Below are positions 32,722 through 61,163 of a stretch of DNA of 64,000 nucleotides, in pieces (within the stretch, counting starts at the first letter, position 1; the number at the start of each line of letters is the position of its first letter). The stretch lies in NCBI GenBank assembly GCA_951230915.1, contig OX579638.1, positions 8,016,696 through 8,080,695 of the forward strand. The letters run 5' to 3'. The notes below the pieces were generated by a model. It had not been told where the DNA came from. It did not search any database and worked only from the letters and a program-made list of their open reading frames with translations. Position numbers and translations under genes: made by a program. Origin of the DNA: Antitrichia curtipendula (taxonomy: Eukaryota > Streptophyta > Bryopsida > Hypnales > Leucodontaceae).

Positions 32722-32726
32722 TTGTG
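32722..32726. repeat. Target-site duplication, 3' side of element B
   Basis: TTGTG, the partner of 29,322-29,326. Confidence 0.8.
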
Positions 32727-33538: not shown

Positions 33539-34184
33539 ATCTGGAGAACTCCAGATGCTCCCTTCATTGAGGACAAAACCTCATGACTTGGTTCTGTGTG
33601 TCCTCCAACTTATCATAAAACAAGTTATCTTTGGAGATCTCCAGAGACCTCCTCTATTCGGTTAACAGACTCATGTACTCGTGTGAAGACGTCATTTACT
33701 GAGACAATATTGCACATTGTATCTGGAGATCTCCAGATGCTCCCATGCATGAGGATTCTACATATCGATATATATTTGAGGAGTTTACAATGAAGTAGTA
33801 TGCTAATGGAATTCTTCTAGGGTACGCATTCTACTGGTTTTGATCCTCGGATTGGGAGCGTTTCTTATTTGTGGCTTCAATGGTGACCATATTAGTTTCA
33901 GAACAGTGGAAAAATGGTTATCTGGAGATCTCCAGATGTGGTTCAGTATTTTGGCTGCTTTGGTGATTTCCATCTGGAGATCTCCTAATGTGGTTCAGTG
34001 TTCGGCTGCTTTGGTGATTTCCATCTGGAGATCTCCAGATGTGGTCTAGTGTTTCAGCTACTTTGCTGATATCCATCTGGAGATCTCCAGATGCTTACTG
34101 CAACTACTCTTCTATATCTCTGTTGTTTTGATGACTCATTAGGGAACTAATGTTATTCACTTGTCATCTAGAGATCTCCAGATG
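33539..34184. repeat. P1 palindrome cluster, left arm of X2
   Basis: Eight copies of the perfect 20-bp palindrome CATCTGGAGATCTCCAGATG or close variants start at about 33,539, 33,628, 33,720, 33,920, 33,971, 34,022, 34,074 and 34,165. Spacing is irregular and the DNA between is mostly unique. They lie upstream of the X2 ParB-like coding pieces on the minus strand, in what appears to be its first intron. The same palindrome recurs around the DUF7869 gene at 56.4-61.2 kb and nowhere else that I can see. Confidence 0.85.
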
Positions 34185-36880
34185 TTCTACATGATTCACT
34201 GAAATAGGACTTTACTATGTGGGTTTCATGACCCTGACTCCAGTGGCCATGCTCATCTTTAGTAATTTTATTGAATCTCTTGATGCGCGGTCATAGGGCA
34301 TCAGGAGATTTTTGTTTAGCAAACGCAGTGTACCAAATTGTAAAGTTCCTCTCTGATTATGCTAATGGGAACCACTTCAGGACACATGAAAAACTCTGCC
34401 TTTTGCTGAGCAGACTAGAAGACAAACTATAAACAGTGGAGCGCATCTGCACTTACGGATCATTCCAAATCCGTGGGACCACAGTTTGTTGCGAGGATGT
34501 CGGCATTGCGGACACGCACTTCTTGAAAATACGAACTCAATCCGCAGAGCCTGCTCAATTCAAAGCAATGAAATGCGAATGTCAGGAACTTCTCCGCAAC
34601 AGTACAGACTACTCAAGAATGGAGAATGGAGAATAGAGAGACCCTAAGACCCACAAACCTAAAGCAGATAGCGTTAGAAATCAAATTACTTGGAAATTTT
34701 AAGAATATAGGATGATTCATTTGTGAAGTTATCACAAACTGAACAACTCCATGACAAACCGAGTCCTCTCATAAACTAATTCCACAAAACTACCTAAACG
34801 TAGCATGGACATTGGATGATACCAGGTGGACACCAAAAAACAAGATTCCAAAAAAAGGAACTACACGCTCACAATGCACATTCTTCAAACACAATGAAAT
34901 ACACCTCACGTCCCTGAAGATTAGCCTTACTAAATCAAACAATGGAATTCAACCTGCTAATACTACTATGACATATTATGTTACATATTAAGTTCGTCAC
35001 ACTTCAGGTACTTGTGCAACTACCTGAATGCGAGGTCCAGGCAAGGGCGAACGTAAAAAACAAACAAAATGAGTTCGTTCTATTTTGCGCTTGGTTACTG
35101 AATTTGGTCACATCACTCTTGTTTACATTTGCATTTACGAATTTGGGACCTTCACCAGAAGCCGATACTCACGTCAATGCATATAACTAGTCTAAAACGA
35201 AAACTTGCAACAAGACGTTGAAGAAACAAGACGCTTAAGAAATAGGGCGCTCAGATAACAATCTAGAGAAGAGGGCGCTGGAAACACTTACAGTCTGTGA
35301 CTGAAAGAGGTGGACCGGTACTCCGAGAAGCGCTCTTGAAGACGGTCAATTGCGTTTGATGAAGCGCTACAGAAGTCGTTCCTTGAGCCGCGCTATAGAA
35401 GCCGTTCCTAGAAATTGAGAAACTCCGCCCAAACACACGGCTGCGCGGACCACCTGAAGAATGTCAGGAGTAGTGGAAGCAGGCGCAAAACATCTGGAGA
35501 AACCTTGCGCGCGTCCAGAGAAACCAAGAGAGAACGGGAGAAAATGGAAGTGGCGGCGCAACCTGGCAGGAGGTGGACACGTCAGCAACGGGGCACTCAT
35601 CACACCACCTCGCCATTATGCCCCTCATCATGGAAGGCTGGGGTGAACTGCCCATATTTGTACAAAAATCTCAAATTTGTAGTTGCCAAGGATGAGGAAA
35701 TTTTCAAGCTCTGAATTCAAATTTGCAAACAAGGCCCTCAAATTAGGTGGGATGGATATTCCACATACATTTCATAGTCCAAAAATATGCGTGTTTTGCT
35801 TGGCACCCCTACAGTGACTTAGGGGGAACAATGAAGGGGTCAATTCACCCAAACCATGAAGATATAGAAGGTATTGTCCAAGAGTCGGGCAATAGACCCC
35901 TACATGTTTGAGGAAACAAAATTTGGTGTTTCCAAAACTTTCAAAATAAATGAAGCCTAACAAACTTATATTTGTAGTAATTTTTAAGTGTGAGATTATT
36001 CTTAACATTTACATTTGGCGGTTTTTGATTCTACATTTCTATTAAAATTTTAGGCAAGGGTACCCATAGAATCTTGAGTTCTCTTAGTGTTTAGGGTTCC
36101 TAAACACAACCTCAAAAACAGTACGACTTGAAGAGAAATTGACATTCAAAACTCATCTTAAGAAATTCTACAAAACATTTTATGAAGCCCTAAACATATT
36201 GGGCCTTAACCACCATTTCGTGTTGGTCACCAAATTTTTTAATTCAGTTGACATGTGAGAAGTAAATGGAAAATATTTCATCATCTTGATGTGTATTTTC
36301 TTTCTATCTCATCTGTAACATATGTAGTTTCAATTTTTACGGTTCAGGGTTTAAAGATATTGATACAACTTATCAAAATGTTCAGTTTCTGTTCAATTCA
36401 GGACCAAAATTAAAAAAGGCTCAAAACAAGCCTTGTGCATTTTGTAGTTACAAGTAGAAATTAAACTTCAAGTACTTTATATGTTCTTAAAGTAATTTTT
36501 AGTATTTCTATATTAAAATACAAGTTGAATTGGCATCATTCCAATCCTTTTTTTTTTAATTTTGGAGATTCTTAAGTTGAAATGGCATAGGGCTCTAAAA
36601 TCGTACACTTCAATCTTCAAATGTACATCATTTGGACATTTGTGAAGTTTAATATGCAGTAATGACATGTATTAATAATAATGTACATCTGACATTGAAA
36701 GGGCAATAATTGAATATCCACAATTTTAGAGGTTGTGACCTTATGTTTAGCGTTAGTACAGGGTAATCACGAGCGTGGTCAATTTCAACAATAATTTACA
36801 AGCACAAATTTTGTGATTTAGATACTTAATGATGATTTTGTTGTGGACGTCCAAGTCACCATAATGATATAATGTAATCC
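34185..36880. other. Noncoding stretch with a candidate leader exon of the X2 ParB-like gene
   Basis: On the minus strand the less AT-rich 35,660-35,292 segment ends in a donor-like GACT/GTAAGTG at about 35,291. With the coding start near 33.4 kb this gives a leader exon and a first intron that contains all eight left-arm P1 palindromes. The rest is AT-rich with no gene seen. Confidence 0.35.
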
Positions 36881-37745
36881 TAAATATAATTCACAAGTGA
36901 CCCGCACTTCTCATTTCATATTTTTTTTCACCCTTCAAACAAATGACTCCCATTTTGATTCACAAGTGAACCCACTTCACATTCCATATTTTTTTCCACC
37001 CGTCAATCAAATGAATCCCATTTCAATTCACAAGTGACTCCACCTCACATTCCATATATTTTTTCACGCTTAAATCAAATGACTCCCATTTCAATTCCCA
37101 AGTAACCCTACTTCTCATTCCATATATTTTTTCACGCTTAAATCAAATGACTCCCATTTTGATTCCCAAGTAACCCTACTTCTCATTCCATATTTTTTTT
37201 CATGCTTAAATCAAATGACTCCCATTTCGTTTCCCAAGTAACACGACTTCACATTCCATATTTTTTTTTACCCTTCAACCGAATGACTCCCACTTCAATT
37301 CACAAGTGAGTTGCACTTCTCATTCCATATTTTTTTCCACCCTTCAACCAAATGACTCCCATTTATATTCATAAGTGACCCCACTTCACATTCCATATGT
37401 TATTTCACCCTTTAACCAAATGACTCCCATTTCGATTCACAAGTGAATCCACTTCACATTCCATATTTTTTTTCACCCTTCAACCAAATGACTCCCATTT
37501 CCTTTCACAAGTGAGTTGCACTTCTCATTCCATATTTTTTTCACATTTAAATCAAATCACTCCAATTTCGATTCCCATATGACCCTACTTCTCTTTCCAT
37601 ATTTTTTCTCACCCTTCTATCAGATGACTCCCATTTCAATTCACAAGTGAACCCCACTACTCGTTCCATATTTTTATTCACCATTAAATCAAATTACTCC
37701 AATTTGAATTCACCAATCACCCCACTTCATTTCATTGAGAAAAAT
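36880..37745. repeat. 68-bp AT-rich tandem array, about 12 copies
   Basis: The phrase AAATGACTCCCATTT recurs at near-exact 68-bp steps, with GACTCCC (or GAATCCC) at 36,945, 37,013, 37,081, 37,149, 37,217, 37,285, 37,354, 37,422 and 37,490. Units also carry CATTCCATATTTTTTT. Copies differ by scattered substitutions, so the array is old. No coding role is seen. Confidence 0.9.
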
Positions 37746-38748
37746 TGTGGAACTGCTAATTTTCAGGAGTTGAAACAGAAAGCAAGTGCTACACCCTAGG
37801 CGGCTAGGCCCTAAATCCTAAACCCTAAATCCTAAAACTTGAAACCTGAAACCTACTGCAGCGAGACCGACTGCAGAGGACGTTGCGCGAGTTCAAAAAC
37901 ATGTAAACAGTACAGGAAAAGAATTTCTGAATTTAGAAGATTCGGTGCGAAATGGCCGTCCACATTAGACAAATTCCGAACTTTGGAGTGACAAATTCCT
38001 CTGAGATTGTGGAAGCAGCGCGCTATTTTTGTTCCGTGATTAATGAGTTCGGCGTCAGTGTGCAGGAGGCACCTCGGATACCTCACCACAAAAAACGTTA
38101 TATTCATTATTTTGAGAGTGTGGGAACCTCTCAAAATAATATTGTCCATTTAGATGTTCAAAATCCAAATATTAAATGTAGGCAATTCAGGTTGAGAATC
38201 ACCACATTTATTAGTTGTAATATTGTAATTTCCATTAAAATGAGAGTTTTGTCACCAAATAAAATCAGGTTTGGATTATACTATTGCTTATGATCATATA
38301 AATGAATTCTAAAACCATTGTTGAGCACCAAATCATGAGCTGAACGTTTGGTTGTGAGAAGCTATTCATCTCCTTCAGGCAGTCCGAGTTCGATTCCCGT
38401 TGAAATCGTATGAGTGACTGAAAGTGATACATGACTTGGTACTGCTAAGTGAGCTTTGCAGGCAGGAAAGTTGTAACAACCAACGGGCCCCCTATCCAAA
38501 ATTGTGACAAGTGCTTCACACGTTAACAAACTAAAGAGTGGTTATACCCACTGCCCTTTTTCTCAATCACATTACATTTCTAAATCCATTTTGAACATAC
38601 ATTAAGCACAAGTCAAAAAATATAACATATCCAAAAAAGAGAATGTGGAAACACGATATAAAAATAAAATTGAAGACAAAAAAATAATAAATATCCAATA
38701 TATGAAGTTAACATACTATAACTAATTTGAGGGTAATATTCCAGAATG
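37746..38748. other. Noncoding flank with telomere-like and Pol III-like patches
   Basis: Degenerate CCCTAAA units lie at about 37,808-37,850. A tRNA-like box B follows at 38,386-38,400. This is the 3' flank of the X1 DUF7869 gene, and the left end of X1 must lie here or just left. Confidence 0.45.
38330..38410 (+). other. Possible tRNA-derived SINE head or tRNA-like remnant
   Basis: GAGTTCGATTCCCGT matches a Pol III box B. A weak box A (GAGCTGAACGTTTGGTTGTGAGAAGC) lies about 30 bp upstream. I cannot fold a full cloverleaf with an acceptor stem, so a functional tRNA is unlikely. Confidence 0.35.
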
Positions 38749-40876
38749 TCAAGTATATGAAGCCAAGCTTTGATTGATGACTTCAATTTGAGATGTAGGA
38801 ATCTTGATCCTACACTCGCGAGTACCTCTTCTGTTCTGGGACTTCCATGCTGTCATCAAAGCGTTTGTTTCCTCCCAAAGAGGTGGTTCGGTTTCATCAA
38901 CCTTCCAACGTAGACCTCTTTCGCTGTCCCACCCTGTATAGAAATCTTGAACATCCTGATTCCTTGATGTCGGACAAAAGTATTGAATGAGCACGCAATT
39001 CGGCTTCTCAGGATTACAGTTTGGATCGGACAACGCCCTGGCAATCCAAACTGGTTGACTTTCACCATCCGCAAGTCGAACTGCAACAAAGTACCCTTCG
39101 TAGAGATCTCGCGCCACCCTGAAGGATGGTTGCGGGCGATCCTTCAAAGGCCCAACATAAGCGTCATCCACACCATATTCTTCAAGGTCCTCGCCATCTT
39201 CGTCTAATTGATCTGCTTTTGCTGCTTGTACATGAGTAGTTGGCCAGAACCCGTCTTTCAAAACAGTGGACAACGGTAGTGGCTCCTGTAGAGCAACCTT
39301 CACACCATACCAATAGCGCACAACTGGCTCGTAGCGTCTCCGACATTCTCCAGTGACGTCTGCATTGCATAGATTCTCCCAGTACTTCACAAATCCAGAC
39401 ACACCTTTCACAATGTCTTCCACGCCTTTCATTGCCTTTTGTGGAACTGACAACGGTACACCGCGCGGCCATTGACTTCGCCCTTCAGCGTCTTCTTTCC
39501 ACAACTTAATGCCTCCGCCATCCTTGCCCAACCAATCTTCATCCGTGCACTTCAATTTGTACTTTATGACTGGACAACCCGTCGAATCTAGATAGAACTT
39601 CACTTGTTGTGGTCTTGTGTGTCCTATGAGAATCTCATCGCCGTCCATCCATTTACCAGCAATGAAACCTTTGAAATCGGGCACCTCTTCTATGAGATGA
39701 GGGATAGTAGGAATGGACTTCACATCCATGAAGGACTTCATGAGGGCTGGGATTGTTGGGAAGTTCTCCTTTTTCAAGAGCATGCTCTATCTTCCAAACA
39801 ACGCATCGATATCATCGTGCGTATGACCCACAATCATGAAGTTCACATACACTTCTCGAAAGATCTTGTTCGCAACAAGTAGAGACCAAAAACAGAAAAC
39901 GTATCTGTTCTTGTTGTCACCTATTGCATTGTCCATTTGCACATTGAGAATAGGGGGCAAAGGCATTGCTGGAACTAAGTTGATTGGCGGAGAAGGAAGT
40001 GAGTTTTCGCACATCTCAGCTCCCTTCAACACTGCACGAAACAAATTGGTGGACCCCAAACCCACAAGCAACTGCCGGGAAGAAGACTTAGGAGGCAATT
40101 CCAAATCTCGCAACAACTTAGCCATCGAGCCAATGGTGTAGTTTGAATCTTTTGTGAATAGATCCAAGCCATAATGTGCATAACGCACATCTCCATGACC
40201 ATGCGCAATCATGCCCGTGACAGACACAGGCAACTTCATTAGACCATCAACATTTTTACTCTTGTGGGAGAAGACTGGACAAGCGGTTTTTGCGTGGTCC
40301 ATTTTGTCATGCATGATTGTGAGGCACTCGTGAGGTGAAGTAAGTGATCGGTAGCGGTTTACATAGTATAGCTCTCGATGAGCACGAGCAATTGCTAGAT
40401 GTTTGTCTAACCTCTGTGACCACTTCAAAGCAGTGACAGACCTAGCAAGAGCACGCCTCCTAAGCTCTTGCAATTTGTCACAAGTAGCGCACTGTGCAAA
40501 ATTGTCCCCTGGTTTCTTCACCTCATACTCTGGAAACGCCGAACATCTAATTTTGCTCAAGTTTGAAATTGAGACCTCCTTCAATCCAAAAGCAACATTT
40601 GCTTCATTGAGTTCTTTCATTTTACCCTTCCATTGGAACGTGGAGGGGAGAATCATGGATACAACCTTTTCCCCCGACTTCAGCGCCTTCGTACGATGTG
40701 GCATGTGATCTGCCTCTTTCTCTAGGATGCATTTCAATGTTGCAGTAGCTTGTTGAGTGTGCTTTCTTGGCTTCACCAATCCTTTGTTGCTGTGCTCCAT
40801 CGCTTCCCGTCCGACCTTCATGTACGTTTGGTAGCGGAAGAAGGTGGATTCCGGGACCCCTGAAATATGCATCCAC

Positions 40877-40884
40877 GCTCGCAT
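40877..40884. repeat. 8-bp target-site duplication, left side of the MITE
   Basis: GCTCGCAT matches 41,241-41,248 exactly. Confidence 0.9.
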
Positions 40885-41104
40885 CAGGGTTGTCCCCGTC
40901 ACGTCCTGTCCGTCCATCAGGATGTCCGGGCGGACGTCAGGATTCAACCCAGGCGTCCGTCAGGATCCAATAAAAAAATAAAAAAATAAATTTTTTTTTT
41001 TTTTGGACGGTCGGTCCGTCCAAGTGGACGGCTGGTCCGTCCTTGTCGACGGAAGGTCCATTCCGTGGACGGTCGGTCCGTCCAGGTCGACGGACAGGCC
41101 GTCC

Positions 41105-41136
<32 letters not shown>

Positions 41137-41240
41137 TTTTTGATCCTGACGCGATCCTGACGCGTCAGGACGCGTCCGGACCGATGCTGACGGACATCCG
41201 GACGTGAAAAGCCCACGTCACGTCCGGATAGACAACCCTG
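40885..41240. mobile_element. Non-autonomous hAT-type MITE (356 bp)
   Basis: Terminal inverted repeats CAGGGTTGTC / GACAACCCTG (10 bp) are flanked by a perfect 8-bp duplication, the size made by hAT transposases. Inside are GGACGG/CCGTCC inverted motifs between a T-run and an A-run, and subterminal GACGCGTCAGGACGCGTCC. It interrupts the X1 DUF7869 gene, and the frame rejoins (VCMRAWMHI) when the element and one duplication are left out. The right end matches that at 29,204. It gives a clear origin for at least one GGACGG block. Confidence 0.9.
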
Positions 41241-41248
41241 GCTCGCAT
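41241..41248. repeat. 8-bp target-site duplication, right side of the MITE
   Basis: GCTCGCAT, the partner of 40,877-40,884. Confidence 0.9.
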
Positions 41249-42097
41249 GCACACCGGTATCTCTTCAATTGTTACCATTCTTCTTCCACGTTGGTCAAGA
41301 TGGGTTTGTCTGTGCACTTCTGTTTTCATAAAGGCTCTGTGCTTGAAGGTTGAATTCTGGTACATGCGTTCACGAAAGGCTTGAATCTTATCCCTAGGGA
41401 ATGGTTGAACACAATTCTGCCAACAACATACTTTGCTAGACACCAAGTTGATGGAATCTTGAGTGAGTAGATCCTTTGTTCTTGCAGTAGTCTCGCGGGG
41501 CAGATTTCGGACGGTACTTGTATAAGGACGCGCAGACGTCGAAGATGGTGGATTTAGAAGAGCCGCTTGGAGGCGATTGTAATTATCTCGCGCCTCATGA
41601 TCACGTAGACTGGCCCCAAGGCAGTGGACTAAATGAATAGGCCAAGCAAGTAGCGAGCACTCCCGTTCTTTTGGCAAGTCATCTTCAGAAAATGTCTTAG
41701 AAATGTGCACTGCTACATGAGTGTCTCCAAGAGGACCACTGACACCGAGGACAAGGTCAGAGTTCACACTGTGGCAGGTACCTTGACCAACTAGAAGGCC
41801 AGCTTCGTTGTACAATGTTACAACCCGAGTATTCCAGAGCCTACGTGGAAGACCTTCACAATCTGGGATGTCAGCATTCACTCCATCCGCATGCTCTACT
41901 TCATCATCTGACGACTCCGACAATAAGACTTCATGTGCCCGCGGGGAGTACTCATCGTCTGATGAATCCACCATGTCCACTGTGTCTGCCGAGGAATCCA
42001 TCACATCTGGACAGAGATCAGTGTTATAGGTGGTAAGTCAACATGATCAAAGAATAGTGCATGTTGTACAAGGAGTAAAACTGACAAGAGAAATGTA

Positions 42098-42779
42098 AGA
42101 TCGACTCGACCTGAACATTCACAATATGAAAATACCTTGAAGGAGGAAACTACCAAAACTGTAACAAGTACATTGCTTACGCAGTATAGTGAAGGACTGT
42201 ATAAGCATTTAGTCTAGCCAATTCAGCGGTTGTTATTCAGGTCGAGCCGACCTGAACGTCATCCTCTAGCAACGAAATAAATCACTAAGTTCTGACCCCC
42301 ATGAAAAGGAGACAAGCATAATCCGCAGATCTCAAGAATTTCACTATCAGGTCGAGTCGACCTAAATCGAATTTGTCTAATACACATGATTCAATCACAA
42401 CGACATTCATTATTATCCTCACTTAGACAAGGAAACAGTTTTATGTGTATCGAGTTTGCCTCGACATATGCGACAGACATTATTCCCGTCTACAGCATTT
42501 AGGTCGAGTCGACCTAATACACATTTCGGACAACACAATATACGGTAATAGACGAATGTCAGTGAGGACATTTTTGAAATAATTAAAGAAAATCATCCAA
42601 TGATCTAGTGTTCCCCGTTTTAGATTGGACCGATCTAAAGTGATGAGGTTGTCTTGTTATGTCGTACGGGACATCATTTATATTTATATCTGCAACCCTG
42701 AAGAGTGCAGCGCCAACTACTATATCAGGAATTGACAGATTACATTACATCGCACACCATTCAGGTCGCCTCGACCTAA
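42098..42779. repeat. P2 palindrome cluster, first intron of the X1 DUF7869 gene
   Basis: Copies of a near-palindrome of TCAGGTCGAGTCGACCTGA type start at about 42,098, 42,236, 42,347, 42,499 and 42,761, with a degenerate TTTAGATTGGACCGATCTAAA at 42,618. On the minus strand they lie between a donor-like GGA/GTAAGTCG near 42,957 and the acceptor just upstream of ATG 42,001, so in the leader intron. Outer bases vary between CAGG/CCTG and TAGG/CCTA, often with symmetric changes on both arms. Confidence 0.85.
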
Positions 42780-42959
42780 ATGTCTCCGGACATTACGGAG
42801 GTATCGTAAAAGAAAGCACAATTTCCCATTCCGTATTTTACGGCGAAAAAATCGGTACCACATTCACACACACTCCTTTAGTGCTTCACGAATCTATTCA
42901 TCGATCAAATGCGTTCACAAACAACCATCTGCGCACAAAACAAGAGCATCGACTTACTC

Positions 42960-44399
42960 CACTGAACCTATCATGCGCATGATCGGAAGTCTACATCCTT
43001 GCCGTTTGGACAATAACTGATGGAATGGAAACCCTACGAAGAAACTGCTGAGTTGTTGAAGACGTACTTAGAACCCGAGCGACTTAGATCGCACTGAACG
43101 TCAGAGTAACCAAACGCCCTGCACGCACAACACTTGAATGACTCTCATGAACAACGCTGAAACAATACTCCACGAACAATGACAGTTTGCGCTCGGAGGT
43201 GCACAGTCTAGCAAATGTGAGTGACAACACCCGAATTCGGACGTGGTCCGCATCCGATAACTTCATGGCGGGAATGGGAGGGCGGGAAGCAGAGTACAGA
43301 AATTTTAAAAACACGCACGTCATACATAAAGTAGCGGGCATGTACTTGGACGTAGATGCATACATACTATTTGCGGTTAACAACACACGGACTGCTGCTG
43401 CCATTAATGTAATCCGCTGAATTTAGTTAGCTCCGTGTTTTTGCAGATTCGTTCTCTACAAAATAAAGTTATACAAAGACAAGTCGGCGTAAAGGGAGGA
43501 AGGTTAATTATTTAATTCTAATTTAGACTTGTTCAAGCAGCATCAAATGAGGGAATTGCCTTCCACAAGGCCAAGGTGAACAGACCCCCTCGCTCGTCAC
43601 CACCCTGAAACTTTGGAGTTTGATACTTTTCACAAATTAACTTTTTTTTGAAACTCTAGGGTTTAGGGTTTAGGGTTTGCAAATATTTGTAAAATTCAGG
43701 GTTTGGACTTTTTTGTACATCCTTAATAAATTTGTTTGAAAAATTAAATCCTACAAGTATTTACAAAATTTTCATTTAGTGAATCCATATGCATTATTTG
43801 TAAAACTGAAACTGCAAAAATTACAAATTGAGCAAAGACTTTACTTTTACAAAAAAATTTGAATCATGCTCAATTTTGGTAATGCTTCAGGTGAAAAATA
43901 ATTACTCTAGCAACGTACTTCTAGACCCTCGAGTCCTCAAAAACTCATAAAATTCATAAGTGGAAGTTTAAGAGAAAAGAATTCTAGAAGTTGCAATTAA
44001 AGAGAAGACTTAGAATTTATGAATTTATTTTTCATCATTGTCATGTTGCTTTGGGAAAGCTTCGCACAAATTAAAAAATTAGGATTATGAAATTCAAGGC
44101 CCTACCACAGTCAAGTGTAAACCCATGAAATTCACATGTGAATGGAAAAAAAATTGTAGAAATTGCAAATGGGGCAAAGACTCTTACTTCATTAGATTTT
44201 TGATCATGCTCATAATAGGAATGTTATGAGCAAATGCTTATGAAAAAAAAATAGGGACTTTAGGGACCACACCTGTAGACCTATGAAACCTATAAACAAA
44301 AGTATGAAAATAGTAAATTGTAGAAGTTGAGAATAAGGCAAAGACAATTGATTCATAAAAATTAAATTGATCATGTTCAAATTATTTTATAAATGGCAT
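42960..44399. other. Intergenic region of X1, DUF7869 leader side
   Basis: The 43,420-42,960 segment is the candidate minus-strand leader exon. GGGTTTAGGGTTTAGGGTTT lies at about 43,659-43,678. The remainder is AT-rich without a recognised gene. Confidence 0.4.
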
Positions 44400-48380: not shown

Positions 48381-48414
48381 TTATAACATACGCATATGCA
48401 TCTCGTTATGCAGG

Positions 48415-49849: not shown

Positions 49850-49990
49850 GTATGTATATCAGATCGGCTCGACCTGAACTGATATAACGTACTCTGTCTG
49901 TGCAAGTCACATGACGGATGGATGTAAATATGGTCGACTTGACCTGAATCATGCATATTGACTAGTTTGTGATGCTTCTCCCTCGTGCAG

Positions 49991-51342: not shown

Positions 51343-51497
51343 GTAAGTGTAACGAACGTTCTTGTACATCATGCACGTTGCTTGTTCGTCAATCAGGTCG
51401 AGTCGACCTGAGGTATACTTGTCCTAAATGTTGTTCAGGTCGAGCCGATCTGTATTGCACTCGTGAGCAAGTGACTGATTTCTGGTCTCTCCTGCAG

Positions 51498-52497
51498 ATG
51501 AGCGGGCTCACTGTGTTCGCGGTGGGTGATTCGGATGAATCCGACGACTGGTCAAGAATTGTGGCCAAGATTCTTGACAAGAGTGATTTTTTGCCTTCCG
51601 GCTATTTCGTTGACGAGTCGATGTATCCCAGGAGGCCTCAGCGGTCAGGGACACCGTCATCGTCGAAGAGGAAGGGGAAGGCGGCGGCAGGAGCCAGTTG
51701 GACACCAGCCAGACAGTTGCCGTCTACAGCAAACGAGAATATCGACATCTCGACGGACAGTGAGCATGAGTTGAACGACAATGTCGATGACTACGACGTC
51801 CCGACTGAGCAGACTACACCAACGGTTTTCGCTTCTCAAAGCATCCGGGGATCGTCGGCGTCATCGGGTCAGCTCGCGGGTCCACAACCGTCGCCCTCGC
51901 CGTCGCCCGCAGCGCGCGAGAAGAAGAGGCAGAGGAAGAATGAGGAGGACGATGTCAGAGAGGCGGAGATTCAACAACTGAGAAAGGACAGGATTGATGA
52001 CCTCAGGTCCAACATGGAGATGTTTGCAAAGAATGCGAGGCAAATGGAGGAATTGAAGAAGTTGTTCCTGATATAACAACAACAGTCTGCAAACCAGTTC
52101 CAGACCCTCATGCATCATGTGGGTGCAATCCAACCTCTGGCGTCTGTGCAGCCCGGGGGTCAGCAGCTGCTCCTCCAAGGTCCAGTAGGAGGATCCAATA
52201 ACAGTGGATCCTCTAGTTTATTGGTGGAGCCCGGTGTTCAAAACATGTCTGCACATCCTCCTCCTGCACCTTCAACTGCAGAATTTGTGGTTCCCGCTCC
52301 GCCTCCTCCTCAATTCGCATGCCCGGAGACTCCGGCACCACCTGCAGAGGATTTGGATCCTTTGGAAGTGCATGCCGAGGTTGCTGGTAGTGAGCCTGCT
52401 ACCATTTCAGTCCCCGGTGACGGCACGGCCCAAGAGCAGACCACTGTCAACGTAGACCAAGACAGTGCTCCACTGGCCCGTCCAGATCCCCTTGTAG
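51498..52497 (+). CDS. X1 ParB/methylase gene, exon 3: end of methylase-like fold, disordered linker, coiled coil
   Basis: The frame continues in phase after CCTGCAG with MSGLTVFAVGDSDESDDW, which fits the strand and acidic turn after motif I. Then comes a Ser/Pro-rich, basic linker and a Lys/Glu-rich coiled coil (EIQQLRKDRIDDLRSNMEMF). A TAA at 52,074-52,076 interrupts the frame. CAA would give a Gln run, and the same frame continues with a Pro-rich region to the donor at 52,498. Whether translation ends at the TAA or the gene was formerly longer is unresolved, but the phases of all downstream exons fit the longer form. Confidence 0.5.
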
Positions 52498-52746
52498 GTT
52501 AATTTTGTTAATATCGCTCGATGTCATTTGTACAGTTTTAGCTTGACTCGAGCTGATTTGTAGAATAGCATGAACATGGATGTAGAACTTCAGGCTGACA
52601 GACAATCATTTTTTGGCAGAACACTAGTAGTGGACATAACCATTGAGTTCTCATTTTGAAAATCAATTTTGTACTTACTTCTTTTCGATATGATGAAATA
52701 TACCGATGTCTCACGGATTTCTTTCTTGGCAATTCCTGAACTGCAG

Positions 52747-52931
52747 AGATACTTGTCTTGATTCCACCAACGTCTCCAGAGCGTATCCCTGTTGCTGAAA
52801 ATCCATATGCAAACGCTGCCATCGTGGACAATCGTGGACCTCTGGGTGGTGACACCTCCACTCCAGACGCGGAGATCTTGGAGATTCCATTGGCGGAACC
52901 TGCTCAACAACCGTCTTCTCCAAAGGAGCAG
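52747..52931 (+). CDS. X1 ParB/methylase gene, exon 4: short linker exon
   Basis: The acceptor CTGCAG ends at 52,746 and the donor GAGCAG/GTAATT begins at 52,932. The phase fits exons 3 and 5. It encodes a Pro-rich segment (IPPTSPERIPVAENPYANAA) without a recognised domain. Confidence 0.45.
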
Positions 52932-53101
52932 GTAATTCTGCGTTTCTCGTCGGTTTCATATCCAGGGGTTTGGGGACTGCATTTTGTTGATTTATTTGGA
53001 CAGTAGGTCGTCCTCTTCAGCTCTTCCTTGATGTCCAAATTGTGTCGAAATGTGTCAGTGCAGCGTAGTAACTGGCTGCACATTTGTACGTTTGATAGCA
53101 G

Positions 53102-53896
53102 GGACCGGATCCTCCATGTCCTCGAGGAAAGTCGAAGGAGGTAGACCTTCCATTGACGTCCAGGGTGTCGGAGAAGTGGCTCAACGTTGTCCTGGACCTG
53201 AATGGAATTTTGTATGTCTGTGAAGATGCGAAGTCCAAGGGCTCGTACTTTCACGCCCGTGATGCGACGCAGCCGCACTCGGCAACCATTCCGACGTTAG
53301 TGGGACCGAAGGCAGTCTGGGTCCGCCCAAATTGCGCTGAGTTCCTCCGTGAGTTAGGACGCATAGCATTCGTTTCCATTTGGAGCTCCATGAAGAAGTC
53401 TACTACGGAAGAGGTTTGCTTGTACCTGTTCGAGGGTCAAGAGTACCCCATGTTTGTTCTCGGTCAGGACTCGTGCACAAAACTAAAGTACAGAGATGAT
53501 TTCGGGTGCATCGGGACTTTTAGTGAATCGGGCACGAGTAAGGATCTCTTCCTCAAGAACATGAGTACCTTGTTCAAAGGATTTCGAGGGAAATTCAACC
53601 ATGAAAATACCATTGCTGTTGATGACAGTCCAGTGAAGCACGTGATGAACAAGACCGAGAATGTCATTCTCCCGGACTCTTGGAATTACAATGGAAACGG
53701 TGCAAAGGACACGTTTCTGCTCGACGTCTTGTTGCCGTGGTTCAAGTGTCTGACAAACGCTCGGGACATAGGGCTGAAGTCATTCCGGGAGACTAGCAAA
53801 GAAAAGATTGGGAGGAGGATGCTCTGCGACGAACGGAGTCGTTGCACGTACAACAGCATTTTGAATGCAGTGCGAGTTTCAGAGAGTTTACGATAG
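53102..53896 (+). CDS. X1 ParB/methylase gene, exon 5: FCP1/HAD-like phosphatase domain
   Basis: The exon starts after GATAGCAG/G and ends at TAG 53,894-53,896. It shows the FCP1-homology (NIF/SCP, HAD superfamily) order: KWLNVVLDLNGILYVC at about 53,175-53,225, then FVSIWSSMKKS (motif II-like), then HENTIAVDDSPVKHVM at about 53,600-53,645 and NVILPDSWNYNG. The usual DxD nucleophile/acid pair reads D-L-N, as in a group of plant FCP1-like proteins that carry DLNG. Loss of the second Asp makes ordinary phosphatase chemistry doubtful. Fusion to the methylase-like part rests on splice-site phases and needs a transcript to confirm it. Confidence 0.6.
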   Translation, partial: GPDPPCPRGKSKEVDLPLTSRVSEKWLNVVLDLNGILYVCEDAKSKGSYFHARDATQPHSATIPTLVGPKAVWVRPNCAEFLRELGRIAFVSIWSSMKKSTTEEVCLYLFEGQEYPMFVLGQDSCTKLKYRDDFGCIGTFSESGTSKDLFLKNMSTLFKGFRGKFNHENTIAVDDSPVKHVMNKTENVILPDSWNYNGNGAKDTFLLDVLLPWFKCLTNARDIGLKSFRETSKEKIGRRMLCDERSRCTYNSILNAVRVSESLR

Positions 53897-54244
53897 GATA
53901 GTGCTCTGTATGTATCGATAGTGTAGTTCAGGTCGGCCCGATCTATTAGGCACATAATTAAAAAGATGTACATTCCTGTGCGCTTTAGCTCGCATCGACC
54001 TAATAGTTGAGTCAATTTCTCACGTACTAATTCACGTTGCCGTTCTCCTTTTGTATGCACATTTTCTCGTGAAATAAAATATTCTCATGTGATTTTTGAA
54101 TATGACTTCCTGTTTGGGTTTCAAGTCTTATTCATCTTACTTGTTAAGCAGTCTGCTGCATTCGCCTAGGATATTTGCATTCGTTTCTGTTATTTTCTCT
54201 GTTCATCTCGAATGATAATGTTTCTTACTGTGTGTTGTTCTCAG

Positions 54245-54880
54245 AATTTGCATTTCTCCCCGTCTCCGTTCTTGGATGCCAGCCTCACTTGTACGGCGTC
54301 GGCCGATTCCATCCTAGACTATGGCCAAAACGCAATTCTGAGTACTGGGAACTTCCTTTGCTCGGCGGCAACAGCAAATTCCACGATGGATTACTCTGCT
54401 AAACCTCTTGAGGATGGTGTGGTAAACAGTCCTCCGAGTGGAACTCCTCGTCTGCCTAAATCCTGCTCCCCTTCTCCTTTAAAGTCTAGAGGTGTTTTTG
54501 CTTCGCTGATGTCACCATCAGCCTCCGATAGAGCACCACAGAGGAAATTGTATGGGAATGTCATGTCACCAATTTTAGCATTGTCACCAGTGTTAGAAGT
54601 GCCACGTGAATTGTGCAAAGAAAAAGCTGCTGTCAATTTGGACTTGCCCTCATTTCCTCGGCCACGTCCTCCTTCCCTAGGAGTAAGAAAGACCAAAACG
54701 CACAACGGAGTAGCGAGCAAGAGTTGCGTTTCTCCATTTTTTGACCGGTGGGATCAAAAGTTCTTAGAACTACAGAGGCGACAGGCACGACAGGAGTACA
54801 AGCAAGCTAGTAATGGATACAACCGTGGGCCAAAGATTAGGAAGGCCATGGAGATGCTCAAGAGTAAGTCGCACATATAG
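54245..54880 (+). CDS. Hypothetical Ser/Pro-rich exon downstream of the X1 gene
   Basis: The frame opens after an acceptor-like TGTTCTCAG (54,244) and ends at 54,880. The product is Ser/Pro-rich (SPSPLKSRGVFASLMSPSAS) with a basic C-terminus (KFLELQRRQARQEYKQ). No domain is recognised. AATAAAA at about 54,075 suggests that the FCP1-containing transcript ends before it, so this may be a separate gene or a last alternative exon. Confidence 0.4.
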   Translation, partial: NLHFSPSPFLDASLTCTASADSILDYGQNAILSTGNFLCSAATANSTMDYSAKPLEDGVVNSPPSGTPRLPKSCSPSPLKSRGVFASLMSPSASDRAPQRKLYGNVMSPILALSPVLEVPRELCKEKAAVNLDLPSFPRPRPPSLGVRKTKTHNGVASKSCVSPFFDRWDQKFLELQRRQARQEYKQASNGYNRGPKIRKAMEMLKSKSHI

Positions 54881-56310
54881 GACATGTTCATATTGTAGAG
54901 TCGTAGTCTAGAGATATACAAGCTCTTTGCACATATTACTTACATTGCAATTCTGCAGTGAATCACACTCGCAGTAATTACGTGCACTGTGATAAAACTT
55001 TACGAGACGTTTACGCCGATAAATATCACACCATTGTATAAAACAATCAAGTGTAATTGGGAAGACACAATTGTTTCATTTTTGTGTTCTCGTCTTCATA
55101 ATATGGAGGCTCATATTGTACTTGTAATGATACTAATTATATGTTTCATACTCATGTCTACTATATTTTGCTGCGTTGTATTCCAATTACTTCGTCTCAA
55201 CTCTTCCCAATTCAGTGGAATCCTCTCATTTTAATGAATATAACGTTAGAAGCCTGATTCATAAACTGAATATGAATCCGGGTGGTTGTGCATGCATCGC
55301 CCGAGAGTTAAGATTCTCGATCCGCCCCTCGCGCAACCTTCTCCTCTGTTTTGATTTGTTGCCTTGTAATTCTTGGTCGCTTGGCCCCACAGCCCACTTG
55401 CGGCTTGGTTTGTGTTTCTCTGTTTTTATCTTCCAGAACATAGAAAATTTATTTGTGTAACTAAAAGCAAAAAAAACCCACACATGAACGCCGAGTCACT
55501 GCATCCTCTTTTAGACCTTGACATTCATGAACGCGAAGTCTTTGCAGGGGTGAGGAAGATTCGTCAACAGCATCGCTGAGGACTTTAAGACGAAATTATC
55601 GGAAAGGCCGGAAGGAATTTCGGAATTCAAAATGTACAGCCTGCCACGATATGGAATTTCAGGAAGGAATCGGTATGGAAGGACCCCTTAGACAGCAATC
55701 CAAACCTGTTAAAGTCAGCAACTTACGTAGAGCTCTCTCTTTTTTTGCACAAATGAAAATGCGTTTTATAGGCAGTGCACTTTGGATGCAGTCTACCTGC
55801 GGCTGGTGTATTGGACACGGAGCTTGGCAAGGCCTAAGACCTGAATGACTTCTTTGCATTCACGGAAGATATGGCAATTGCACAAGTGACAATATCATTG
55901 GTGAACAATTTCTGGTTTTAGATATATAGTTTTGTCTGTAAACGATAGAGAGGTGAAGGTATTGGAGAGGACAATGGTACACAAGTACAATCCAATCGCA
56001 AGCGCGTAGTATGACAGGATTCATAGAAATACAGAGATCAAACAATCCTACAGCGCGTGCTTCTCTGACCTCGATATTTATTAATGATTTATTAGTTGTC
56101 CAAGTATGTTTGAAAGCAAGAGGGTTTACAACTCCGCGCAATGTTGAATGCTCGTTGGCGCGTCGCAATGACGACATTTTGAACCCTGAACTGCAAGCTC
56201 ACTGTCTGTTATTTAGGAAAATCATGTGTTCGAATGGTTGTAAAGGTGGTCTGACGATTTGCGTTGCTCTAAACCTCGTTGGAACTGGGTGGTTATTTGG
56301 TGGACTGCGC
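54881..56310. other. X1/X2 junction region and candidate leader of the X2 DUF7869 gene
   Basis: The right end of X1 should lie here. At 56,311 a donor-like TGCGC/GTAAGC would close a leader exon of the X2 DUF7869 gene, whose acceptor is CTTGCAG at 57,308-57,314. I see no coding domain. Confidence 0.35.
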
Positions 56311-56405
56311 GTAAGCGTGTGTATAGGATTACTTGAATCGTATACGTTTCACCTTGTCGGGAAATAAAAAATAAAAAGAACATTATATAATAGTGTAAGT
56401 GCTTT

Positions 56406-57158
56406 GTCTGGAGATCTCCCGATGATATGCGGAATGAAACATTAATGGTAAGGTTCAGAAGTCTGTAGGAATAACTTCTTCGATTAACATGCTCACAGAT
56501 GCATCAAGAGATCTCCTGATGAATCATAAATGTACTTCGGGCTTCGAAATCTAGACCATCCACGGACGACTGAAATGTCTATGTCTAGCTTCCCCAGAGC
56601 CAAATAAGAACATGGAGAGATCTCCAGTCGCTGATTTTTAGTACCTTAAGACATTGGCTTGACTTTCTATCTATTAGAAAAGCCGTAATGTTTAAGGGTC
56701 ATCTGGAGATCTCCAGATGACTTGTTCAGATAAGCTATTGACCAGCTACTGTTGTGGAAGACCCAAATTCGGTTACATAGTAGATCGACTTGGAATTCAA
56801 TAGCAGGGAGTAACCAGTGACGGCTGTCATACACTTTCTCCAACGGTACGAAACTAGTACTGGTCAGTGGAGTGTGGAATCGTCTGTGCCGTTGACGTCG
56901 AAGTATGCGAAAGTCCAACTATGTTTATTAGACAATACAGAATAACCCAGATCCTGAAATGTGCAATTTTGTGCTAAAAATATAAACCGCCATTCCTGAT
57001 GACGGTTTGGGAATTCCAAGACATCTGGAGATCTCCCGATAACTAGTTGCGTTTGTTCTTTGATAATAATTATCATTCTAATTTAAAATATTACGACGCT
57101 TGTACTATCAATGACTGACATTTTTCTCTATCACTTCTCATCTGGAGATCTCCAGATG
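56406..57158. repeat. P1 palindrome cluster, first intron of the X2 DUF7869 gene
   Basis: Copies start at about 56,406, 56,502, 56,611, 56,700, 57,022 and 57,139; those at 56,700 and 57,139 are perfect 20-bp palindromes. They match the left-arm copies at 33.5-34.2 kb and none is of the P2 type. All lie between the donor-like site at 56,311 and the acceptor at 57,314. Confidence 0.85.
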
Positions 57159-57340
57159 GTTATTGAAGAAATTTTGCACTATTTTATTTCATCAATGGAT
57201 GTACAATCGAGGTTCGCAGTGGGATATTTTCAATTTTTCACCGAAAGTACCCTTAATTACCGTTTTAGACGGTTACAGAATAAATCGTGGACTAATCTCT
57301 TGTCAAACTTGCAGGTTGGGTAACTTGGGTTACTCCTGTT

Positions 57341-60300
57341 ATGCCTTCGGACATGGCACAATTTGAGGGAGACACTAGTGAAATGGATTCTTCCTTGGCA
57401 GGGCTTGACCTTGCTATTACTCCTTACATAGGTGGATCTGTAGGTGAGGATGAATCTCTGATCTCATGTGCTAGGACGTCACCCTTGAAGAATGGTGATT
57501 ATGTAAAGCTCTTTGTTCAAGGATTTGGTGAGGTTGGAGGAGGATCTGTTGTGGATGCCAGACCTGTGGGAGAATGGCTTGGTGTGGCCATCCCTTTGCA
57601 GCCATGGATCTTCGTTTTTGTATGACCTCAACCTCTTGTGCACGAAGCCGAGCTCCTGAATTTCCTTCCAAGTCAGAGGGGTTTTCGTACATTATGTGAT
57701 GTACTACATCGTACTGTGCTGTGGAGAGCCTGCGACGTGGAGAAGTCATCTAGAGATCCCCCGATGGATGCGGGTTCCTTCATTCGACCAGAGGAATGGA
57801 TCGGGCTTGAAGTGCATCGGAAGGACTATGACGGTACCCTACTCTCGTCGGATCGGATAATCTGCTAAAAGTTGGATGACCATTTTCAAGAGTCAATACT
57901 TGGTGAAGATTATGTCGGTGTTACGGTGCTGGATGTTTTTGTAGGTGGTCCAGAAACTATAATGACGCACGAGCGATGGCCTAAATTGGAATGTTCGTTT
58001 CCAGAAGGTTGGTCGTTGAAGGAGACAGTGGACTATTTTGCATCCCTTCCTGTTGATGAAGACCCACTGTCTTATTTAGGTGGTCGGCCGAAGGCACGCT
58101 ATCGCTTTATTGTACGTAGTCCTAGTAATGTCTTAAGGGTATCACAGTATGTACGCAAGACGACTGACGATGAAGTCCGAAAGGTTAGTGCTCAAAGGTG
58201 CTATGAGAGTGGATGCTGCCAATTCTTTCCGTGTGAGAGTACTCTAATTGTGAGACGTAAATTCTGGGTTAAGTCATTTGAAGAGCTTCGCGAGTACGGC
58301 ATTGCGGTGGGCGGACAGTTGCATAGAATTGATGGTAATCGGAAGCAAAAGTACATTACACTCGAAGGCGCCGAGGTTTGTGGGATGGCCTGGTATATTA
58401 TTCATGGAATTGCAAAGTCCACTTATCACAACTACATTGACAAGTATCAGCAAGGGGTAGTTTCAACCGCACACGGAAACAAGGGGGTTAGGCGCCCTAG
58501 AGTCGGAGTTGTCCAGGTGGCTGGCACAATGAAAGCCATCATCGATAACAATGCTGACCAAATGCCCCATCAAATGAGGGGAGTTGGTAATGGGAGAATG
58601 GACACTTTGAAATTTCTACTTGCTGGCAACAACTGGAAGCGCATACGTGCTGACGCAAACAAGGTACTACTGTTTCCTTGACAATGAAGCGTGGCTCTTT
58701 ATTTGGAGATCTCCAGATGCTTGAGAGTTAGACGTATCTCTCGAAATTGTGCACTTCATCTGGAGATCTCTAGGTGCTTCCAAGTGATCCTTGTCTTGCG
58801 AAGCTTGAGTGACTGTTGTAGTCCTGTTCTATGCTTCTTGCTTCTTGTTGTCGTGTTCTACGGCTCATGTGCTCATAGCTGATTTGTGGTTCCATGTTGC
58901 ATGCAGTTGAACAAGGATTACGGCCTCCCTTGTGTCAGTCAGTCGACTATTAGTAGAATTAAAAAGGAGCACTTCAACAATGTGCACATTAAGCATGTCG
59001 GAAGTTTGTTTGCAAAATGCACAAAGTGCGATGAGCTTCAGCAATTCATTCTGAAATCTCCAAAAGGAAGTACGGAGTATGTTTTGTTTATGAAGCAACG
59101 AACAGAACATTTGAACCACCAAGCATCTTGCCGACGTCTATACGCCTCGTGGAGGGAGGAATCGAAGAGAAACCCTCAAGATATTCTTTGTATCATTCAC
59201 GACAAGATGCATACTTGCAAAACGGCTCTTCCCAAAATGCGAGTAATTACAAAAGCGACGCAGGGATTAGGGCAACTTCCCATGAGCGTAACTGGAATGG
59301 TCGCCCATGGTCACGCTGACGGTGCGTACGCCCATTACTCCCCATCAAGTTGGCCAGGAGACTCCAATTTTACAGTATCTTCATTGGCTAGGCTATTCCA
59401 ACGAGTCGACGACTTGAAGGTGCGCCGATTCGGGAGACGGGCGACCTCTTTCCTTATTCGCCCGCCAATGCATTCTTTGAGGCGCTGCTTAGAGGGAAAT
59501 CGAGGTGTCTAGACAGCTTGAAGCATGTTCAACCAGGTGCTGAACGTGGTGCCGTCCCTCTTCCAAAGAATTTGTACCTCCAACTTGATAACTCTGCTAA
59601 AGATAATAAAAACTAGTATCTAATGGGTTTTTTGTCATTGCTAACTGCACGAGGCGTCTTCAAGGAAATCCAGGTCAGTTTCCTCCTAGTTGGGCACACT
59701 CATGAGGACATTGATGCCTATTTCAGTCACCTTTCTAAAGCATTGAAAAGCAAGAATACTTTTGTTGTCGCGGATCTCATGAAGGCCTTTATGGAGTCCC
59801 AGGAACTATCATTTCTACCGGAGTTCATTCAAGAGGTAGGTGATTTTAAGTCCTTTGTTAAAAGATACCTATGCAGTGGCGCTACTAGACTCATTTGCTT
59901 GGGGGAGATGCATCTGTTCAAGTTCTATGTAGAGAACGACGGGAATCTTGTCATGAAGTACAAAAAGTCAGCTATTGATTCAAATTGGCTACCATCTGAT
60001 ACAACTTCTCGATGTTTATGGAACAAAGACAGTAGTGGTGGGGCTATGCTACCTTGAGGTTGCCCAAAGCTTGTTCCTTTCAAGTCGGTGTGGGGAAGTG
60101 AAGTTCCTAAATCCACGGGAAATCAAGAGAAGGCTCTCGATAATGCACGGAAAGCTACTGTGAACAAGGGCTTCATCATGATAGGACTAGAGAAGTACAT
60201 TCAGTTTTGGCAAAACGGAGTGTCTAGATGCGAAGGATTTGCCACCGCTTTTGGGCCATACGTGGAATACTGGAGACGTGTGTTGTGTGAACTGAAGGAA

Positions 60301-60843
60301 CCACTTGCCGACTGTGCTGCGGAGTTGAACGAAGGCTTTTGGCCGCAACATGATTGGCGCGTTACGGAGGAGGAGACACTTAGACCAATGATTAATCCGG
60401 TGGATTTGAATGTAGAGGAAGAGGACCCGGAACCTTTTTGTGGCCCAGCGAATGAAGCTCCAAGGGAGTCCTTTAATCCTTGGGTTGACATTCGCCCAGG
60501 ATCATGGGTTCTTCCGAGACCCGAAGACCCCGTAGTCTGTGCTGTTTGGCAAGGGAGAGTACTGTCTGATGTATGTAAGGATCCGGAAGCTATGAATTAT
60601 GGCCAATTTTTCGTGCAATATTGGAGGCCAGATAGTAGCGAACGTACACTAGAAATGAGATACTGCAATTGCTCGTATGGTAAATGGGTCATTGAAAGTA
60701 CTCCCCCGACTTGGGTAGACGCCTCCGCTGTAGTGTACACCACTTGGTCGAAAAAAGTGAACCCAAAATTGAGGACTATTTCTGCGAAATGTAGAGAGGC
60801 TGCCTTGGCGAATTTGAATAGGGCCAACGAAGTAGACCCTTGA
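57341..60843 (+). pseudogene. X2 DUF7869-like (putative RNase-H-fold transposase) gene, decayed
   Basis: ATG 57,341 follows an acceptor (57,314). The frame carries TGA at 57,623 and TAA at 57,866, both explicable from CGA and CAA. An intron with two P1 palindromes (58,664-58,906) is absent from the X1 copy. Matching blocks are CTKCDELQQF, IHDKMHTCKTALP (Asp at 59,201), GHADGAYAHY, QLDNSAKDNKN (59,581) and VGHTHEDIDAYF (about 59,690-59,725), so all putative catalytic acids are kept. A frameshift lies near 59,440, a TAG near 59,614, and a TGA at 60,055 stands where X1 reads Arg in PRGVP. The N-terminal 250 residues are largely unlike X1, apart from a Cys-containing FP motif and HTH-like IAKSTYHNYIDKY. 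Confidence 0.65.
58700..58776. repeat. Two P1 palindromes in the X2 DUF7869 internal intron
   Basis: TATTTGGAGATCTCCAGATG at 58,700 and CATCTGGAGATCTCTAGGTG at 58,757 lie inside the 243-bp intron 58,664-58,906. Confidence 0.85.
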
Positions 60844-60873
60844 TCTATTATCTCGTCTCTGGCTGCTTGCGGT

Positions 60874-61163
60874 CATCTGGAGATCTCCGGATGGAATACT
60901 GGAGCTGTCCGATGGTAATAATGGTGTTTGGTTTTAGAGGTTGGACCAAATTTTAGCACCTTATGGAACTAGGTATATCGAGTTCATGGCATTAATAGTG
61001 AAGTACTATAGATTGGAGGAGTACATCGTTTTCCTCCTCAAATGTGAGGAGTAAAATTATATCTATCTTCCCTAGAACCATACAATTTATGAAACTAGTT
61101 GTTTGTGGTGACTGATGGACCACTTTGGTTGATTCAATATAAGCATCGGGAGATCTCCTTATG
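60874..61163. repeat. Two P1 palindromes in the 3' flank of the X2 DUF7869 gene
   Basis: CATCTGGAGATCTCCGGATG at 60,874 and CATCGGGAGATCTCCTTATG at 61,144 follow the stop at 60,843. Weaker traces are seen near 62,025 and 62,190. Confidence 0.8.

What the first reader, a model, noticed from the sequence alone, without database searches (positions are those of the whole stretch)
33539..61163. Two related large elements, nested, each marked by its own palindrome
Around the X2 genes I count about 18 copies of a 20-bp palindrome with an AGATCT core (P1: CATCTGGAGATCTCCAGATG). Around the X1 genes I count about 20 copies of a 19-bp near-palindrome with a GTCGAC-type core (P2: TCAGGTCGAGTCGACCTGA). 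The sets do not mix: P1 occurs at 33.5-34.2 and 56.4-61.2 kb, P2 at 42.1-42.8 and 47.6-54.0 kb. Both accompany the same two gene families in the same divergent layout. Such mutually exclusive signatures in paralogous elements suggest co-evolution of a DNA site with an element-encoded reader. I know of no named eukaryotic transposon with this layout.
Basis: partly seen in the sequence, partly recalled or inferred. Interest (0 to 1): 0.93.

Follow-up and report, generated by a model that had tools for sequence, protein, structure and literature searches.

The report
Giant transposons with lineage-specific palindrome signatures
Two nested giant mobile DNA elements each carry their own short mirror-image DNA word, scattered mostly through their non-coding parts, and relatives elsewhere in the same genome carry other versions of the word that follow the element's family tree, which looks like a self-recognition address read by a protein the element makes.

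Summary
P1 has 17 sites and P2 14 distinct sites at <=3 mismatches (chance 0), in the blocks described, unmixed. They belong to two nested large DNA transposons, each with a DUF7869 gene and, divergently, a gene with a ParB-like motif (a relic in X2). A complete P1-type relative (element B) is 22.2 kb, with 26-bp terminal inverted repeats and a 4-bp target duplication.

In X1, 0 of 18 sites lie in coding sequence; in B and C some lie in open linker frames. In 30 X1-type copies the sites diverge nearly as slowly as coding DNA, their flanks far faster. 46 of 52 exact P2 sites lie near this gene family; P1 linkage is only partly tested.

Other lineages carry other palindromes, changed on both arms: TYAG-NN-CGA-S-TCG-NN'-CTRA (NN = GT, CG, CT) and CATC-NN-GAGATCTC-NN'-GATG (NN = TG, GG). 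P2-type versions follow the gene's tree. Best reading: a dimeric element-encoded protein, probably the ParB-like one, recognises its own lineage's DNA, perhaps against silencing as VANC does. ParB-like plus methylase genes are reported in a 21.5-kb Ectocarpus Sola1 element, so this is a new variant.

The parts
38094..55247 (.). Element X1 (P2 type), putative extent; candidate terminal inverted repeats 38094-38118 / 55223-55247 (88%)
   Evidence: Best inverted match between the two flanks, E 0.002; no target duplication seen, so the ends are provisional
38752..42037 (-). X1 DUF7869 gene (candidate transposase), interrupted by a 356-bp insertion at 40885-41240
   Evidence: PF25273 E 2.5e-32 on 39790-40959; ORFs; insertion read from the sequence
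42096..42779 (.). P2 cluster upstream of the X1 DUF7869 gene (42096, 42237, 42347, 42499, 42620, 42761)
47720..48380 (.). P2 cluster upstream of the X1 ParB-like gene (47720, 47828, 47902, 48059, 48222, 48362)
   Evidence: conserved against flanks in 30 copies
48414..52502 (+). X1 gene with ParB-like motif (IINGQHSVTASK) and degenerate methylase-like stretch (both names by recall); frame broken in this copy, open for 511 aa in a relative; extent inferred
   Evidence: ORFs; relative L018; dN/dS 0.11 in the family
49850..49990 (+). Inferred intron (GTATGT...CAG, with stops inside) holding two P2 sites, 49859 and 49929
   Evidence: sequence, ORFs; sites
51343..51497 (+). Inferred intron (GTAAGT...CAG; its length restores the reading frame) holding two P2 sites, 51393 and 51435
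   Evidence: sequence, ORFs; sites
53099..53893 (+). NIF/FCP-type phosphatase exon downstream of the ParB-like gene; P2 sites follow at 53928 and 53985
   Evidence: PF03031 E 2.2e-15; also present in elements B and C; sites
29192..33438 (-). X2 ParB-like gene relic, two pieces (33438-32718 and 29362-29192) split by a 3.4-kb repeat
   Evidence: tblastn with element B's gene, 53%, 44% and 44% identity
33538..34184 (.). P1 cluster upstream of the X2 ParB-like relic
56405..57158 (.). P1 cluster upstream of the X2 DUF7869 gene
57340..60843 (+). X2 DUF7869 gene, frame broken, start inferred; P1 sites at 58700 and 58757 in a non-coding gap, one at 57747 inside the first part of the gene
   Evidence: PF25273 E 1.9e-26 on 59617-60054; tblastn; homology to B from 57412; sites
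60874..61163 (.). P1 sites downstream of the X2 DUF7869 gene
62233..62258 (-). Right terminal inverted repeat of X2 (ATGCCATATTTAACTACTTTTGGACT)
   Evidence: exact match to the end of element B

Best explanation
These are giant cut-and-paste DNA transposons (Sola-like in size, 4-bp target duplication and gene layout). Each carries a DUF7869 protein, probably the DDD transposase, and divergently a long gene with a ParB-like motif, a degenerate methylase-like stretch and an FCP-type phosphatase. The palindromes, mostly in promoters, introns and downstream regions, are binding sites of a homodimer encoded by the element itself, most likely the ParB-like protein. Binding marks the element's own DNA as self and protects or activates it, much as VANC does for VANDAL. 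When a lineage's reader changes specificity, its sites change on both arms, giving a lineage 'dialect'. Shown: the sites, their constraint, the dialects, and for P2 the linkage and the agreement with the gene tree.
For: Sites far above chance. X1: 0 of 18 places in 8372 bp marked as coding; B: 0 of 17 in the conserved exons marked. Pairwise divergence 0.14 in sites, 0.37 in other non-coding, 0.11 in coding over 30 copies; 8 of 8 sites below their flanks; dS 0.37, dN 0.041 in the ParB-like domain. Exact P2: 46 of 52 within 10 kb of the gene family. Different palindromes, symmetric in consensus, in other lineages; labels need 8 changes on the ParB-like tree, the minimum. Element ends. Precedents in print (passages).
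Against: No profile supports ParB or methylase; both AlphaFold models were useless. Single sites are often imperfect: in the X1 clade 78 of 194 sites at <=1 mismatch have the same dinucleotide on both arms. Not all sites are clearly non-coding: 2 of 17 in B (31348, 31920) and 4 of 12 in C (35038, 35242, 35317, 35476) fall in open linker frames, and P1 at 57747 falls in the X2 gene. P1 linkage was shown for only 9 of 44 sites. The tree is dominated by 30 close copies and I set its labels after seeing the sites. No binding or methylation data.
Confidence: 0.5

Rival explanations
1. The palindromes are read by the DUF7869 transposase itself, for end pairing or self-regulation, as TNPA reads subterminal repeats of Spm (recalled). 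They co-vary with the transposase lineage.
For: The DUF7869 piece is predicted helical in its N-terminal part (low-confidence model). Exact P1 lies upstream of 6 of 6 DUF7869 hits with a 650-aa open frame and 0 of 38 others on C1-C5 (grouping made after the fact). Degenerate P1b sites reach near the right end of element B.
Against: Sites cluster upstream of both genes and in introns of the ParB-like gene rather than at the ends; in locus C a ParB-like gene has its own palindrome (P3) without a DUF7869 gene of divergent orientation in the 40 kb read.
Confidence: 0.25
2. Sites are bound by host transcription factors or are plain promoter elements copied within each element; dialects arise by drift and within-element copying.
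For: Clusters lie next to both gene starts; some arrays are tandem (locus C, period 53 or 28).
Against: A host factor would not be expected to change its word with the element's family tree; two-arm changes and conservation in an intron are not expected either.
Confidence: 0.13
3. The palindromes act in RNA as hairpins in UTRs and introns, or in linker-coding RNA, for example for export or processing.
For: Several are in introns, transcribed flanks or open linker frames; a P1 variant has 8-bp arms around 4 bases.
Against: P1 and P3 consensus are perfect palindromes without a built-in loop, occur in both orientations relative to the genes and upstream of the gene starts, some probably outside transcripts (inference).
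Confidence: 0.07

Closest known systems
Ectocarpus Sola1-1_Ec32 (PMC12477816; passages read)
   Same: Giant DNA transposon (21.5 kb against 22.2 kb for element B) with a transposase gene and an opposite-strand gene described as ParB-like + DNA methyltransferase; [quoted passage not shown]
   Different: No palindromic sites or lineage dialects in the passages seen; here a phosphatase domain is added, the methylase-like stretch is degenerate and no profile confirms it; homology to Sola transposase not tested
VANDAL / VANC anti-silencing (PMC5735166 passages; PMC10398659 outline and abstract)
   Same: Element-encoded protein reads short motifs repeated in introns, intergenic and terminal non-coding DNA of its own family; motif and protein change together between families
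   Different: VANC motifs (YAGTATTAY; AGTTGTCC) are not palindromes; different elements; no VANC-like match seen here and no epigenetic data exist
Bacterial ParB-parS (recalled)
   Same: Clusters of 16-20-bp palindromes near the gene; ParB-like motif
   Different: No ParB profile hit; no ParA seen; a eukaryotic transposon
En/Spm TNPA subterminal repeats (recalled)
   Same: Element-encoded protein with many short sites in the element
   Different: Sites here are largely internal and intronic rather than subterminal

Membership tests
Sola DNA transposon superfamily | 4-bp target site duplication (PMC10741241 passage) | tested here: met
   Element B: ACAA on both sides, empty site in a related repeat; one copy only; not seen for X1
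Sola DNA transposon superfamily | Terminal inverted repeats (11-1124 bp) | tested here: met
   26 bp, 1 mismatch, element B; X2 right end identical
Sola DNA transposon superfamily | DDD transposase homologous to Sola | not testable with these tools
   Only DUF7869 matched; protein search switched off; no library of named transposons; DDD residues are only guessed from conserved acidic motifs
VANC/VANDAL-type anti-silencing | Family-specific motifs in non-coding DNA that change with the protein lineage | tested here: met
   for P2-type; with the exception of sites in open linker frames in B and C
VANC/VANDAL-type anti-silencing | Protein binds motif and removes methylation | not testable with these tools
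   needs experiment
VANC/VANDAL-type anti-silencing | VANC protein homology | tested here: inconclusive
   No significant Pfam match in the ParB-like gene pieces; no direct comparison with a VANC sequence was made
ParB family | ParB profile match | tested here: not met
   Pfam, NCBIfam, PHROGs, PDB sequences: none; only a short conserved QH-A-K motif that resembles ParB by recall
NIF/FCP phosphatase | PF03031 above cut-off | tested here: met
   X1 57.1 bits, C 37.0, B 25.3 against 21.8

The most novel reading that the evidence does not exclude
A eukaryotic self-recognition code: giant transposons carry a dimeric ParB-like reader and parS-like palindromes whose inner dinucleotide and outer bases form interchangeable lineage addresses (TYAG-NN-CGA-S-TCG-NN'-CTRA; CATC-NN-GAGATCTC-NN'-GATG), so that each family protects, marks or activates only its own copies, with a phosphatase perhaps acting on chromatin or RNA polymerase.
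Probability: 0.38. Interest if true: 0.88.

Novelty: new variant of a known kind. Interest (0 to 1): 0.74.

Why it matters
ParB-like + methylase genes in algal giant transposons have been suggested to bind and modify their own element; the passages I saw name no sites. This genome offers candidate sites, several natural specificity variants and their matched genes, so protein-DNA specificity and co-evolution can be tested directly. It would be another case of VANC-like sequence-specific self-recognition, with palindromic sites that allow a half-site code to be worked out.

Tried and rejected
Tried without result: AlphaFold of the X1 ParB-like domain and DUF7869 piece from single sequences (pLDDT 34 and 39), so no fold search was run. 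PDB sequence searches, NCBIfam and PHROGs, phage tblastn: nothing useful. DUF7869 in papers: 0. Paper searches brought one relevant paper (PMC12477816). A de novo palindrome detector fired on 15 of 35 background 2.5-kb pieces (some of these pieces hold P1-type sites), so I do not use it as statistical evidence; a constant-position P2 model gave 1 site at <=1 mismatch in 99,029 bp of background. Considered and dropped: palindromes as mini-transposons (flanks evolve faster and are not part of the repeat) and one element with two signatures (they separate by lineage). X1 ends are provisional. The free-dinucleotide genome scans (P2 105 onward, P1 106), the CATCTGGAGTGATCCAGATG scan (100, 102, 104) and the searches with element B's and C's ParB-like genes and with the X1 DUF7869 piece did not complete.
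Full report
OBSERVATION. The window is C6:8016696-8080695 of a 400-Mb unnamed eukaryotic genome.

ANATOMY. X1 has a DUF7869 gene on the - strand (42037-38752; PF25273 E 2.5e-32) and divergently a long gene on the + strand (about 48.4-52.5 kb), followed by a NIF/FCP phosphatase exon (53099-53893, E 2.2e-15). X2 has a DUF7869 gene on the + strand (about 57.3-60.8 kb). Its divergent partner survives only as a relic on the - strand (33438-32718 and 29362-29192), split by a 3.4-kb repeat. X1 lies between the two halves of X2, so the nesting is real. X1 candidate ends are 38094-38118 / 55223-55247, without a visible target duplication.

ELEMENT ENDS. A relative of X2, element B (C1:22677840-22699995), sits in another copy of the 3.4-kb repeat. 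Comparison with the uninterrupted copy in the window gives its ends: 22,156 bp, 26-bp terminal inverted repeats (ATGCCATATTTAACTACTTTTRGACT, one difference) and a 4-bp duplication ACAA. X2's right end in the window is an exact copy of this repeat at 62233-62258. B also holds DUF7869, the ParB-like gene and the phosphatase in the divergent layout. The duplication rests on one copy.

WHERE THE SITES LIE. With a 12-position model, X1 has 18 distinct sites, none in 8372 bp that I marked by hand as coding; two inferred introns (49850-49990, 51343-51497, supported by stops inside or by frame) each hold two sites. B has 17 GAGATCTC sites, none in the DUF7869, ParB-like, methylase-like and phosphatase stretches that I marked; but two of them (31348, 31920) lie in open frames between these (30990-31604, 31601-32164) that may be linker-coding and that I had not marked. 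In C, 4 of 12 P3 sites (35038, 35242, 35317, 35476) lie in open linker frames. In X2 one P1 site (57747) lies inside the first part of the broken DUF7869 gene. So the rule is 'outside the conserved domains', not strictly 'non-coding'.

CONSTRAINT. In 30 X1-type copies (L017-L046) mean uncorrected pairwise divergence is 0.14 in 8 sites, 0.37 in other non-coding DNA and 0.11 in coding; all 8 of 8 sites are below their own 19-bp flanks. For 18 of 29 relatives (11 dropped for length) and 136 of 153 pairs (17 under 80% identity dropped), corrected dS is 0.37 and dN 0.041 in the ParB-like domain; 10 of the 18 carry stops. So the protein and the sites are both conserved, while the DNA around the sites drifts at about the silent rate.

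DIALECTS. P2 superfamily: TCAGGTCGASTCGACCTGA in the X1 clade (at least 3 sites at <=4 mismatches in 30 of 30 loci); TTAGGTCGASTCGACCTAA in L048 and L049; TCAGCGCGASTCGCGCTGA in L050, L051 and L055; TTAGYGCG...CGCGCTAA in L052, L056 and L057; both outer bases in L053; TCAGCTCGAWTCGAGCTGA in L058; L054 has a single CG site; L047 is degraded. Locus C has TCAGAGCGGCCGCTCTGA beside a ParB-like gene (12 sites at <=4 mismatches). P1 superfamily: CATCTGGAGATCTCCAGATG in X2; CATCGGGAGATCTCCCGATG in B; CATCTGGA-GTGA-TCCAGATG upstream of C's DUF7869 gene; L059 is too degraded to call. X1-type loci L017-L058 hold 2 P1-type sites in 145,392 bp, no more than the rest of the window shows by chance. Single sites are imperfect: in the X1 clade 78 of 194 sites at <=1 mismatch have equal dinucleotides on both arms, in L050-L058 31 of 47. 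The symmetry is that of the consensus, not of every copy.

TREE. On a tree of 43 ParB-like domains, nine dialect labels need 8 changes, the least possible (shuffled mean 12.9, 0 of 200 as low). Caveats: 30 rows are close copies, labels were set after seeing the sites (L047, L053 and L054 got labels of their own), only 7 of 40 inner branches are strongly supported, the bootstrap had not settled, and B was left out (98 aa).

LINKAGE. Exact P2: 52 sites in the genome (193 and 178 matches at <=1 mismatch on the two strands, many counted on both; reversed control 0). 46 of 52 lie within 10 kb of one of 130 scored ParB-like hits (of 804 candidates); random placement gives mean 1.3, maximum 8 in 2000 trials (length of C7 assumed). 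Of the 46, 45 sit next to the 60 best-scoring hits (68-100% identity). P1: 240 sites at <=1 mismatch, control 0. Of 44 exact P1 sites on C1-C5 only 9 lie within 30 kb of the 64 scored DUF7869 hits (of 1747 candidates), all 12-20 kb upstream as the divergent layout predicts. They fall on 6 of 6 hits with a 650-aa frame and on 0 of 38 others; this grouping was made after the fact, and two of the six have nearly equal distances and may be duplicates. The other 35 P1 sites are untested, so P1 linkage is open.

'ParB' rests on a short conserved motif ([GD]QH[ST]xxA[SH]K; Q, H, A and K invariant in 8 sequences) and on recall; 'methylase' on a glycine-rich stretch in X1 and C by recall. No library gave support. 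[quoted passage not shown] That precedent makes the naming more likely and lowers the novelty.

MECHANISM. Two-arm changes in the consensus, conservation against flanks and agreement with the element's own gene tree point to a dimeric reader encoded by the element. The closest functional parallel is VANC (PMC5735166, passages; PMC10398659, outline and abstract). What binding does is inferred: anti-silencing, self-marking or regulation.

VERDICT. A real and strong feature; a new variant of known giant transposons, with a testable specificity code.

Noticed in passing
genome contig C5 (37.19 Mb): 82 of 130 scored ParB-like hits lie on C5, which is 9.3% of the genome, while X2-type DUF7869 hits are less skewed (17 of 64). 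C5 may be a sex chromosome or another poorly recombining chromosome.
   Followed up: no
window 2015-5382 and 29327-32721: Two inverted copies (78% identical) of a 3.4-kb repeat; pieces of another copy flank element B; one copy splits the X2 gene.
   Followed up: partly
window 40885-41240: 356-bp insertion with ends CAGGGTTGTC/GACAACCCTG and 8-bp duplication GCTCGCAT inside the X1 DUF7869 gene (read), hAT-like by recall.
   Followed up: no
window 27299-28432: DUF659 (hAT-type by recall) ORF, E 2e-40.
   Followed up: no
C1:1499619-1499782: Eight tandem 21-bp units AACATCTGGAGATGTTTGTAC upstream of a P1-type DUF7869 gene, a shortened P1-like palindrome.
   Followed up: no
window 36888-37729 and 44407-45245: Tandem arrays of about 68 bp and 178 bp in the middle regions of X2 and X1.
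   Followed up: no
C1:1508000-1517999 (L015): P3 ParB-like gene points the same way as the neighbouring DUF7869 gene, so it seems to belong to a different element running beyond the stretch read.
   Followed up: no
L015 (C 35112-36008) and L011 (B 31601-32164): Palindromes inside open linker frames read as repeated peptides (QSGRSEL in C, SGDLP in B): the DNA word may be written into protein-coding sequence.
   Followed up: no
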